A stretch of 64,000 nucleotides of DNA, from the NCBI GenBank assembly GCA_016285885.1, contig JAEERP010000001.1:496001-560000 (forward strand), in the 5' to 3' direction. The stretch is from Paludibacteraceae bacterium. Lineage in GTDB: Bacteria; Bacteroidota; Bacteroidia; Bacteroidales; Paludibacteraceae. The notes beneath the pieces are model-generated. The model made no database searches and was not told where the DNA came from. It worked only from the letters and a program-made list of their open reading frames with translations. Positions 16,550 to 18,650 of this stretch are shown one piece after another (the stretch's first letter is position 1; every line of letters starts with the position of its first letter). The translations under genes and the position numbers were made by a program.

Positions 16550-16656
16550 CCGAAATATGCAAAATTTGTAAGTTATTTACAAAAATTACATATTTTTTCA
16601 ATATATACTATCATTATATTTGCTAAATTCGCGTGTAACAGGAAATTTATAGCATT

Positions 16657-17985
16657 ATGTTGGTAGATTTTTCAGTCGAAAATTTTCTTTCCTTCAACAG
16701 CAGGCAAACAATAACGTTTGAACCTGACACGAAAGTGAAGGGGTTGGAGGATCATTATTTCATATCCGTCCAAGATAAACAGAAAGGGCGCACGCTCAAT
16801 TTGTTGAAGATTGGGATGATATATGGCGCCAACGCATCGGGAAAAACCAATCTCCTGAAAGCGCTGAATTATCTGAAAAAGATTGCGTTAAAGACAAAGA
16901 CAGAAAAGAATACCCCTTTGTCATTCGTTCCATTCGAACTTGATTATTCGAAAAACACGTCAATGGAGGTGAACTTCATTTCCAATGACACCAAGTACAA
17001 TTATAAGATTGAATTCAACAAATATTCCGTTGTATACGAAGAACTTAACGAGTATCCCTATTTGACGTCCGGGAAAAGCAAGAACATCTATAAACGGACA
17101 ACGGATGTAAACAAGCAGTTGTCGGCCATTGAATTCGGGAAAGGACAGAATGTGGACCCGATGATAGCAAAAATGCTAAACATCAGCACATTGTGGAACG
17201 AGACTGTGCTTGCCGGTTTTTCTAAAATAAGTGCGGACATAGAAGCCTTAAGAAATGTAAGTGAATGGTTCAATGACTATTTGGAAGAGTTGATGCCCTG
17301 GCAAACGTCTTTGGACATGTTATTGGCGGAGGACATAAACGACCACAGGGTAAACGAGGCGGATGTGATAAGCGCGTTAAAAAGGGCTGATTTTAATATC
17401 TCGGGAATATCAATCGAAAAAAGGGCTCCCTTGACGAGTTATTTGCAGGATGTGGTTGAATCGTACAACGGAGAGTGTAATATAAAAGAGGCATTCGATG
17501 TGTTGGATGACATAGACAGCAATACGGTTCCGCAGATAAAGCTAAAACACCGGACAGGGCAGAAAGAGTATGAACTGCCATATACGCTTGAGTCGGAAGG
17601 GACAAAGCGTTATTTCGGGCTGATGGGGATACTCTTGAAATTGACGAAATCAGAGAAGTTCATGATGATCGACGAATTGGATACGTCATTGCATCCCGAA
17701 TTATATGAAGCGTTTATCGTCTCGTTCCTGAAGAATGTCAGAGGGTCGCAGTTGCTCTTCACGACCCACAACCGCGAATTCCTGCAAAAAAAGCGTTTGC
17801 TACGGAAAGATGCGTTGTGGATAACGGACAAGCGGGAAGATGGCTCCACCGAGGTATATTCGTTCGCGGACTTCGACAGTTCTGTGATTCGGGACACGAC
17901 AAGCATATACAACGCGTATAGCATCGGCAAACTGGGTGGTGTCCCTAACAACGACAGTGATTTGATATTCAAAACCGAAGGATAA
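16657..17985 (+). CDS. AAA family ATPase (AAA_15/21, RloA/AbiLi-like), predicted phage-defence ATPase
   Basis: MLVDFSVENFLSFNSRQTITFEP; Walker A GANASGKTN; Walker B/D-loop KFMMIDELDTSLHPEL; switch TTHNREFL. Confidence 0.9.
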   Translation: MLVDFSVENFLSFNSRQTITFEPDTKVKGLEDHYFISVQDKQKGRTLNLLKIGMIYGANASGKTNLLKALNYLKKIALKTKTEKNTPLSFVPFELDYSKNTSMEVNFISNDTKYNYKIEFNKYSVVYEELNEYPYLTSGKSKNIYKRTTDVNKQLSAIEFGKGQNVDPMIAKMLNISTLWNETVLAGFSKISADIEALRNVSEWFNDYLEELMPWQTSLDMLLAEDINDHRVNEADVISALKRADFNISGISIEKRAPLTSYLQDVVESYNGECNIKEAFDVLDDIDSNTVPQIKLKHRTGQKEYELPYTLESEGTKRYFGLMGILLKLTKSEKFMMIDELDTSLHPELYEAFIVSFLKNVRGSQLLFTTHNREFLQKKRLLRKDALWITDKREDGSTEVYSFADFDSSVIRDTTSIYNAYSIGKLGGVPNNDSDLIFKTEG

Positions 17986-18650
17986 TGGCCCGCAGGAAAA
18001 ACAGGAAAGATGCACATCCCGTTGGTTATGTCCTGATTGCCGATGGCGACACCGAAAAATGGTACGTTGAGTTGGTTAAGGATTATTATGGACTAAAGGT
18101 AAAGATACAGCCGGAGTTGTCATGCGGTTCGATAACGGATCAATACGAATTGGTGAAAGAATCGATTGCGAAGGGATATGAGCATGTTTTTTGGATGATT
18201 GATTTCGATTGCGTCCTGAAGGAAAACAAGGAAACCAAGAGTGCCAATAGCGTTTTGCAAAGTTTCAAGAGTTGTTACCAGAAGGCAAAAAGCAGGAAGG
18301 AATGGGAAGATAAGCTGACCATCATAGTGAATAATCCATGTCTTGAATATTGGTTTTATCTGCACATGAACCCGCGCTCGACGAAATATTTCGGGACATA
18401 CAAGGAACTGTTACCAGAATTGCGGAAGTTTCAGATTGACGACAACTTGTTTGGGAAGTACAATAAAAGCAAGAAGGACTTCAAAAGTTGTCCGAATCTG
18501 TTCGAGAAGCTACTGCCATATATGCAGAAAATTGACCACAAACTATTAAAATCCTTTGACATTGAGGCATGCCAGCAAGAAAGCGTCTCGGAAATGCCTA
18601 AATTGTTCGAAACGTTAGAAAAGGGGATGCATAGCGGGCTGAAAGAATAA
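17985..18650 (+). CDS. RloB-like (Toprim-like) protein, partner of the AAA ATPase
   Basis: N-terminal ARRKNRKDAHPVGYVLIADGDTEKWYVELVKDYY, WMIDFDCV, NNPCLEYWFYLH: RloB family signatures. First base overlaps the upstream stop codon region. Confidence 0.85.
   Translation: MARRKNRKDAHPVGYVLIADGDTEKWYVELVKDYYGLKVKIQPELSCGSITDQYELVKESIAKGYEHVFWMIDFDCVLKENKETKSANSVLQSFKSCYQKAKSRKEWEDKLTIIVNNPCLEYWFYLHMNPRSTKYFGTYKELLPELRKFQIDDNLFGKYNKSKKDFKSCPNLFEKLLPYMQKIDHKLLKSFDIEACQQESVSEMPKLFETLEKGMHSGLKE

What the first reader, a model, noticed from the sequence alone, without database searches (positions are those of the whole stretch)
16550..18650. AAA ATPase + RloB (AbiL-like) defence pair inserted inside one unit of a tandem ~120-bp repeat array
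Seen directly: array A runs to 'gcgtctctacattgc' at ~16549. The two genes follow. Array B then resumes mid-unit at 'aataatagcgccc', essentially at the rloB stop codon (~18648). An intact unit has ~50 bp ('ctaaccgcac...cataggcg') between those two points, so the cassette appears to replace the middle of a single unit. Established: AAA_15/21-type ATPases paired with RloB/Toprim-like proteins form anti-phage modules (AbiL; architecturally related to PARIS). Inference: the repeat array is a landing or exchange site for defence cargo inside a capsule locus.
Basis: partly seen in the sequence, partly recalled or inferred. Interest (0 to 1): 0.78.

Follow-up and report, generated by a model that had tools for sequence, protein, structure and literature searches.

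The report
AbiL defence pair inside repeat array
In a ruminant-gut bacterium, a two-gene anti-phage module sits inside one unit of a hairpin-repeat array in a capsule gene cluster, and relatives carry different defence cargo or none at the same spot, which suggests that the array marks a slot where defence genes are swapped.

Summary
Array A (15914-16548) and array B (18650-18880) are the same 118-121 bp tandem repeat. The insert (16549-18649) leaves a unit at position 33 and the unit resumes at about 83-85 in register, with about 50 bp missing. The two genes are an AbiLi/AbiLii (AAA_21 + RloB) pair with intact conserved motifs.

Comparison of seven same-genus genomes (Paludibacteraceae, ruminant gut) shows the array at one fixed place: after wzc and two GT2 genes, beside the wzx flippase start. 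In G011 it holds Rpn, AbiL and nSTAND3-Mrr; in G001 it precedes Rpn; in G015 a Panacea pair; in G005 and G007 it has no defence gene. AbiLi is 98.8% identical between G000 and G011 while wzc is 88.8%, so the cassette was probably transferred recently.

The array core is a dispersed GTAG-tagged palindrome resembling REPs. The best explanation is a capsule-locus exchange slot working by recombination between array units, comparable to Neisseria minimal mobile elements and NIMEs.

Against a strictly causal array: G010 has cargo at the slot without the array, and G003 and G018 carry AbiL between unrelated, locus-specific repeats. Phage defence and the recombination mechanism are inferred, not shown.

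The parts
15896..15917 (+). partial repeat (GTACAGACGCAATGCCCTATCC) opening array A; the same element opens the array in G001 and G011
15914..16548 (+). array A: five complete 118-121 bp units plus the left 33 bp of a sixth
16516..16548 (+). left half of the interrupted unit (unit positions 1-33), ending 5 bp after the hairpin
16550..16656 (+). cassette 5' region, 95% identical in G011, with a Bacteroidales-type promoter motif TATATTTG 42 bp before the AbiLi start
16657..17985 (+). AbiLi, 442 aa, AAA_21/ABC-type ATPase with Walker A GANASGK, Walker B IDE and a THN motif
17985..18650 (+). AbiLii, 221 aa, RloB-family putative Toprim-like effector with invariant D20/E24, D73xD75 and NNPxxExW
18650..18880 (+). 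array B: right part of the interrupted unit, one full unit and a truncated last unit
18974..19066 (+). remnant of a wzx flippase 5' end (MSKNNQLKAGAVLNYVVIVMNILV...), intact in G005; a right boundary of the slot
9669..14083 (+). conserved left boundary of the slot: wzc-like gene and two GT2 glycosyltransferases
14196..15869 (+). acetyltransferase + glycosyltransferase pair between the GT2 gene and the array here; its homologues lie on the other side of AbiL/nSTAND in G011

Best explanation
The feature is a self-contained AbiL-type abortive-infection cassette (own promoter, AbiLi ATPase sensor/regulator, AbiLii RloB/Toprim-like effector) sitting in an exchange slot of a capsule biosynthesis locus. 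The slot lies between the conserved wzc-GT2-GT2 genes and the start of the wzx flippase. It is marked by a short array of REP-like hairpin units whose 118-121 bp repeats exist only there. Shown: the in-register interruption, the array at the same place in five sister species, different cargo or none between the array halves, and unusually high identity of the cassette between two species. Inferred: cassettes enter and leave by homologous or microhomology-assisted recombination between array units, or between array or flippase-5' segments on incoming DNA and the chromosome, with breaks favoured at the hairpins. Also inferred: during phage infection AbiLi releases or activates AbiLii, which stops growth, probably by nucleic-acid cleavage.
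For: Junctions in register. Array at the same slot in G011, G001, G005, G015 and G007. Cargo between array segments differs: AbiL (G000, G011), Rpn (G011; right of the array in G001), Panacea antitoxin pair (G015), then nSTAND3-Mrr (G011) and DUF3791-DUF3990 (G015) next to it; G005 and G007 have no defence gene and share the right end of the array with G000 almost base for base. Ten capsule genes around the slot give no PADLOC hit while several cargo genes do. AbiLi DNA is 98.8% identical G000-G011 against 88.8% for wzc and 79.2% for GT2b. AbiL, Panacea pair and nSTAND leave the array at unit positions 33, 34 and 39, just 3' of the hairpin (read directly). Close AbiL relatives in G003 and G018 also lie between direct repeats; control rate 6/299. 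ATPase motifs and RloB acidic residues are intact; the AbiLi model resembles Rad50/PtuA ATPases.
Against: G010 has Rpn and a KAP NTPase at the slot with no array. Flanking repeats in G003 and G018 are unrelated to this array and exist only as that pair, so duplication at insertion is also possible. G346 (65%) and G727 (53%) have no flanking repeats. G000 and G011 may share one insertion event. The genomes compared are different species (at least one is a MAG), so no strain-level excision or replacement is documented. No phage assay exists. The AbiLii model had no significant PDB fold match.
Confidence: 0.62

Rival explanations
1. The array is a consequence, not a cause. Capsule loci are variable anyway; cassettes arrive by ordinary homologous recombination in the conserved flanking genes, and REP-like hairpins with their spacers simply multiply in the non-essential DNA between cassettes.
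For: G010 has slot cargo without the array. The same palindrome forms short tandem arrays next to ordinary genes elsewhere (C11:97255 and C13:72261). Capsule loci are variable in general.
Against: The interruption lies inside one unit in register, and unrelated cargoes (AbiL, Rpn, Panacea pair) have array segments on both sides. Random growth of the array would not place half-units exactly at cassette edges.
Confidence: 0.25
2. The cassette inserted by an event that duplicated a local target of 50-130 bp, and the repeats on both sides are that duplication rather than a pre-existing landing array.
For: G003 and G018 AbiL pairs are flanked by direct repeats found nowhere else in their genomes. 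The KAP NTPase of G010 is flanked by two copies of the flippase 5' segment.
Against: Here the array has at least eight units and exists without AbiL in G005, G007, G001 and G015, so it is independent of AbiL.
Confidence: 0.07
3. REP-type mobilisation: the units are recognised by a RAYT (Y1 HUH transposase) and the cassette moved as single-stranded DNA between two hairpins.
For: The palindrome is tagged with GTAG at one end, as REPs are (PMC3733652). 13 of 28 Y1_Tnp loci in the genus lie between long hairpin-rich direct repeats. In G004 a Y1_Tnp gene lies beside capsule wzc within the hairpin family that flanks AbiL in G003. Three cargoes leave the array just 3' of the hairpin.
Against: No Y1_Tnp locus of the genus is immediately flanked by the hairpin of this array. 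Right-hand re-entry points vary. No excision product is known.
Confidence: 0.06

Closest known systems
AbiL (AbiLi/AbiLii) abortive infection, Lactococcus
   Same: Two-gene order ATPase then RloB-family protein; PADLOC AbiLi 1.1e-73, AbiLii 2e-13.
   Different: Different phylum; the invariant acid in motif 1 is Asp (ADG[DE]TE) in this clade where more distant homologues have Glu (GEGxTE). No activity tested.
PARIS (AriA/AriB)
   Same: ABC-type ATPase with a separate Toprim-like partner; AriA model hit 9.5e-30. AriB is a tRNA-cleaving Toprim nuclease (PMC12409363).
   Different: Partner hits AbiLii/RloB only, not AriB.
Neisseria minimal mobile elements and NIME/dRS3 arrays
   Same: Different gene cassettes between conserved genes, brought in by homologous recombination; intergenic arrays of a short inverted repeat plus longer spacers, associated with surface-structure genes (PMC3898611).
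   Different: Unrelated sequence, other phylum; one main spacer type at one locus; cargo includes phage-defence genes; recombination not shown here.
Core defence hotspots of Pseudomonas aeruginosa (cDHS1/2)
   Same: Fixed chromosomal slot between conserved genes with changing defence systems and no single mobile element (PMC10250203).
   Different: Much smaller slot, inside a capsule gene cluster and marked by a tandem hairpin array.
REPs / GTAG-tagged palindromes and BIMEs
   Same: 28-bp extragenic palindrome, many copies, GTAG at one end, often in clusters (PMC3733652).
   Different: No cognate RAYT identified; the array repeats a long, locus-specific spacer as well; copies head-to-tail.

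Membership tests
AbiL | AbiLi-type ATPase with Walker A/B | tested here: met
   PADLOC 1.1e-73; G57-A-N-A-S-G-K63 and D339-E340 invariant or nearly so; fold like Rad50/PtuA
AbiL | Adjacent RloB-family AbiLii with conserved acidic residues | tested here: met
   Pfam RloB 7.5e-15, PADLOC AbiLii 2e-13; invariant D20, E24, D73, D75
AbiL | Toprim fold of AbiLii | tested here: inconclusive
   Model pLDDT 78, no PDB match with E <= 0.001
AbiL | Phage-triggered growth arrest | not testable with these tools
   needs plaque and toxicity assays
PARIS | AriB-family effector | tested here: not met
   AbiLii is the only PADLOC hit of protein 2
REP element | 20-40 bp extragenic palindrome in many copies | tested here: met
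   61 copies, 59 outside ORFs
REP element | GTAG tetranucleotide at one end | tested here: met
   array hairpins GTAC...CTAC (GTAG on the other strand); many dispersed copies GTAG...CTAC
REP element | Cognate RAYT flanked by the same palindrome | tested here: not met
   3 Y1_Tnp genes in G000 and 28 loci in the genus; none directly flanked by it
Minimal mobile element / exchange slot | Different whole-gene cassettes between the same conserved genes in different strains | tested here: met
   Seven species-level genomes; several strains of one species were not available
Minimal mobile element / exchange slot | Incorporation by homologous recombination | not testable with these tools
   inferred from repeats and identity jumps
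NIME (Neisseria) | dRS3 sequence ATTCCC-N8-GGGAAT | tested here: not met
   palindrome here is GTASAGACGC-N8-GCGTCTSTAC; resemblance is architectural only

The most novel reading that the evidence does not exclude
Hairpin-repeat arrays of RAYT/REP type act as dedicated docking sites for defence cassettes in Bacteroidales capsule loci. Cargo leaves the array at a fixed point just 3' of the hairpin, so an HUH enzyme or hairpin-induced breakage could make the exchange site-directed rather than random.
Probability: 0.12. Interest if true: 0.8.

Novelty: new variant of a known kind. Interest (0 to 1): 0.56.

Why it matters
It links two layers of phage resistance, the capsule and intracellular abortive infection, at one exchangeable site, so a single recombination event could change both. 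It also gives an array sequence by which further defence cargo can be sought in uncultured ruminant Bacteroidales, and a concrete case for testing how defence genes move without an obvious mobile element.

Tried and rejected
Scan of metagenome contigs for the unit found only a contig with the length of the window's own contig, so no population view was obtained. Scan of GTDB contigs with AbiLi gave only the G011 contig. Rfam: no match in 13000-20000. PDB by sequence: no useful match for either protein. Viral and plasmid collections hold only distant AbiLi relatives (at most about 40% identity), so carriage of this clade by phage or plasmid was not supported. RAYT mobilisation was examined and kept only as a low-probability rival. 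MAD3/MAD4 (MADS) matches are far below the curated cut-offs and were rejected. An ncRNA reading of the array was not pursued: units fold well as RNA (z -1.3 to -3.8), but the fold is dominated by the palindrome and there is no Rfam match.

Full report
Observation. Units of 118-121 bp start at 15918, 16038, 16156, 16277 and 16398; a sixth starts at 16516 and stops at 16548. The insert runs from 16549 to 18649. The repeat resumes at 18650, the last base of the AbiLii stop codon, at unit position 82-85, and continues with units starting at 18687 and 18808. Both halves align in register with every intact unit; about 50 bp of the unit are missing.

What the array is. Each unit begins with a 28-bp palindrome, GTACAGACGCAAAATTTTGCGTCTCTAC, followed by about 90 bp of spacer. 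The palindrome is dispersed: 61 copies with up to three mismatches, none in shuffled genomes, 59 outside ORFs, 14 clusters with two or more copies. The spacer belongs to this locus alone in this genome. The palindrome carries GTAG at one end, the mark of REPs (PMC3733652), but no Y1_Tnp gene of this genome or of the 16 genomes of the genus is directly flanked by it. I call it REP-like, not a REP with a known RAYT.

What the genes are. Protein 1 is AAA_21 (1.3e-30) and AbiLi (PADLOC 1.1e-73); protein 2 is RloB (7.5e-15) and AbiLii (2e-13). Both are intact by motif: Walker A GANASGK and IDE in AbiLi; D20, E24, D73, D75 and NNPxxExW in AbiLii. The AbiLi model matches Rad50 and PtuA ATPases; the AbiLii model gave no significant match. 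RloB domains have been related to OLD/Toprim domains by HHpred, and AbiLii is described as the toxic effector of AbiL (PMC10440598). The pair has its own Bacteroidales-type promoter motif (the motif itself is from my own knowledge). Among the genomes searched, the closest relatives (63% or more) are in Paludibacteraceae, and named protein hits at that level are from Paludibacteraceae too.

The orthologous slot. The genome belongs to a genus of Paludibacteraceae; G011 is a yak omasum MAG. The slot lies after wzc and two GT2 genes and before the start of a wzx flippase. G000: AcT-GT, array, AbiL, array, flippase remnant. G011: array, Rpn, array, AbiL, array, nSTAND3-Mrr, AcT-GT. G001: array, Rpn, end of contig. 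G005: ornithine cyclodeaminase-like gene, array, intact flippase. G015: the same gene, array, Panacea pair, array, DUF3791-DUF3990, flippase. G007: epimerase, two-unit array, flippase remnant, a homologue of 19107 (83.5%), then the same genes as G000 at 96-98% DNA identity. G010: no array; Rpn, flippase 5' segment, KAP NTPase, flippase 5' segment. G008 and G009 are more distant; no array was found in the slot and the genes scanned there are not defence genes. Thus arrays exist without AbiL, and unrelated cargoes lie between array segments.

Transfer. Between G000 and G011 AbiLi is 98.8% and AbiLii 95.2% identical at DNA level while wzc is 88.8%, wza 84.2% and GT2b 79.2%. GT2a is 95.1%, so part of the locus has also been exchanged or is strongly conserved. 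This fits recent transfer of the cassette between species.

Flanking repeats elsewhere. AbiL relatives in G003 (67%) and G018 (64-65%) lie between direct repeats of 53 and 76 bp, and in G289 (44-46%) between repeats of 92 bp, against 6 of 299 control gene pairs in G000. The control comes from G000 only, so the comparison is approximate. Those of G003 and G018 occur only as that pair in their genomes, judged by a 16-17 base core, so they are local duplications, not copies of this array. G346, G727 and most distant relatives have none. Four of the six control positives include Rhs-type toxin tips.

Mechanism. The simplest account is homologous recombination in array units and in the flippase 5' segment, as in Neisseria minimal mobile elements and NIME arrays (PMC3898611). 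Three unrelated cargoes leave the array 5, 6 and 11 bp after the hairpin, at unit positions 33, 34 and 39, while re-entry points vary and Rpn leaves later (read directly). With three cases this is only suggestive, but it would fit breaks at a hairpin. Rpn, a recombination-promoting nuclease family by name (TIGR01784), is itself a cargo in three genomes and could assist.

Verdict. It is a new variant of a known kind: a small defence-cargo slot within a capsule locus, marked by a REP-like array. The causal role of the array and the defence phenotype remain inferences.

Noticed in passing
L042:10400-10511 and 12575-12640: In G011 about 60 bp of sequence upstream of AbiL is repeated upstream of the nSTAND3-Mrr gene, directly after an array end; a shared left edge of two different cassettes.
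   Followed up: partly
window 18974-19066; L071:6882 and 10083: Remnants of a wzx flippase 5' end persist as boundary segments; in G010 two copies flank a KAP NTPase with weak QatA similarity.
   Followed up: partly
L079, L080, L116, L117, L119, L123, L126, L127, L130, L132, L136, L137, L139: Y1_Tnp (RAYT-like) genes of the genus commonly lie between long hairpin-rich direct repeats; in G004 (L139) one lies beside the capsule wzc.
   Followed up: partly
G000 contig C34:5430-8592 and 33963-35581: Rhs-type toxin tip cassettes are flanked by direct repeats of 55-86 bp, another case of repeat-flanked conflict genes.
   Followed up: no
window 17985-18650: Motif 1 of this AbiLii clade has an invariant Asp (ADGDTE/ADGETE) where distant homologues have Glu (GEGxTE).
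   Followed up: no
window 63358-63440: Another short tandem of the same GCGTCTCTA core, with 16-bp periodicity, near the window end.
   Followed up: no
G000 C13:403527-404780 and C8:102932-104119: Two further, distant AbiLi-like ATPase genes with small RloB-like partners in the same genome, without flanking repeats.
   Followed up: partly
IMG/VR contigs L190-L269: The palindrome GTASAGACGC-N8-GCGTCTSTAC occurs in 95 stretches of viral contigs, so the core is widespread beyond this genus.
   Followed up: no
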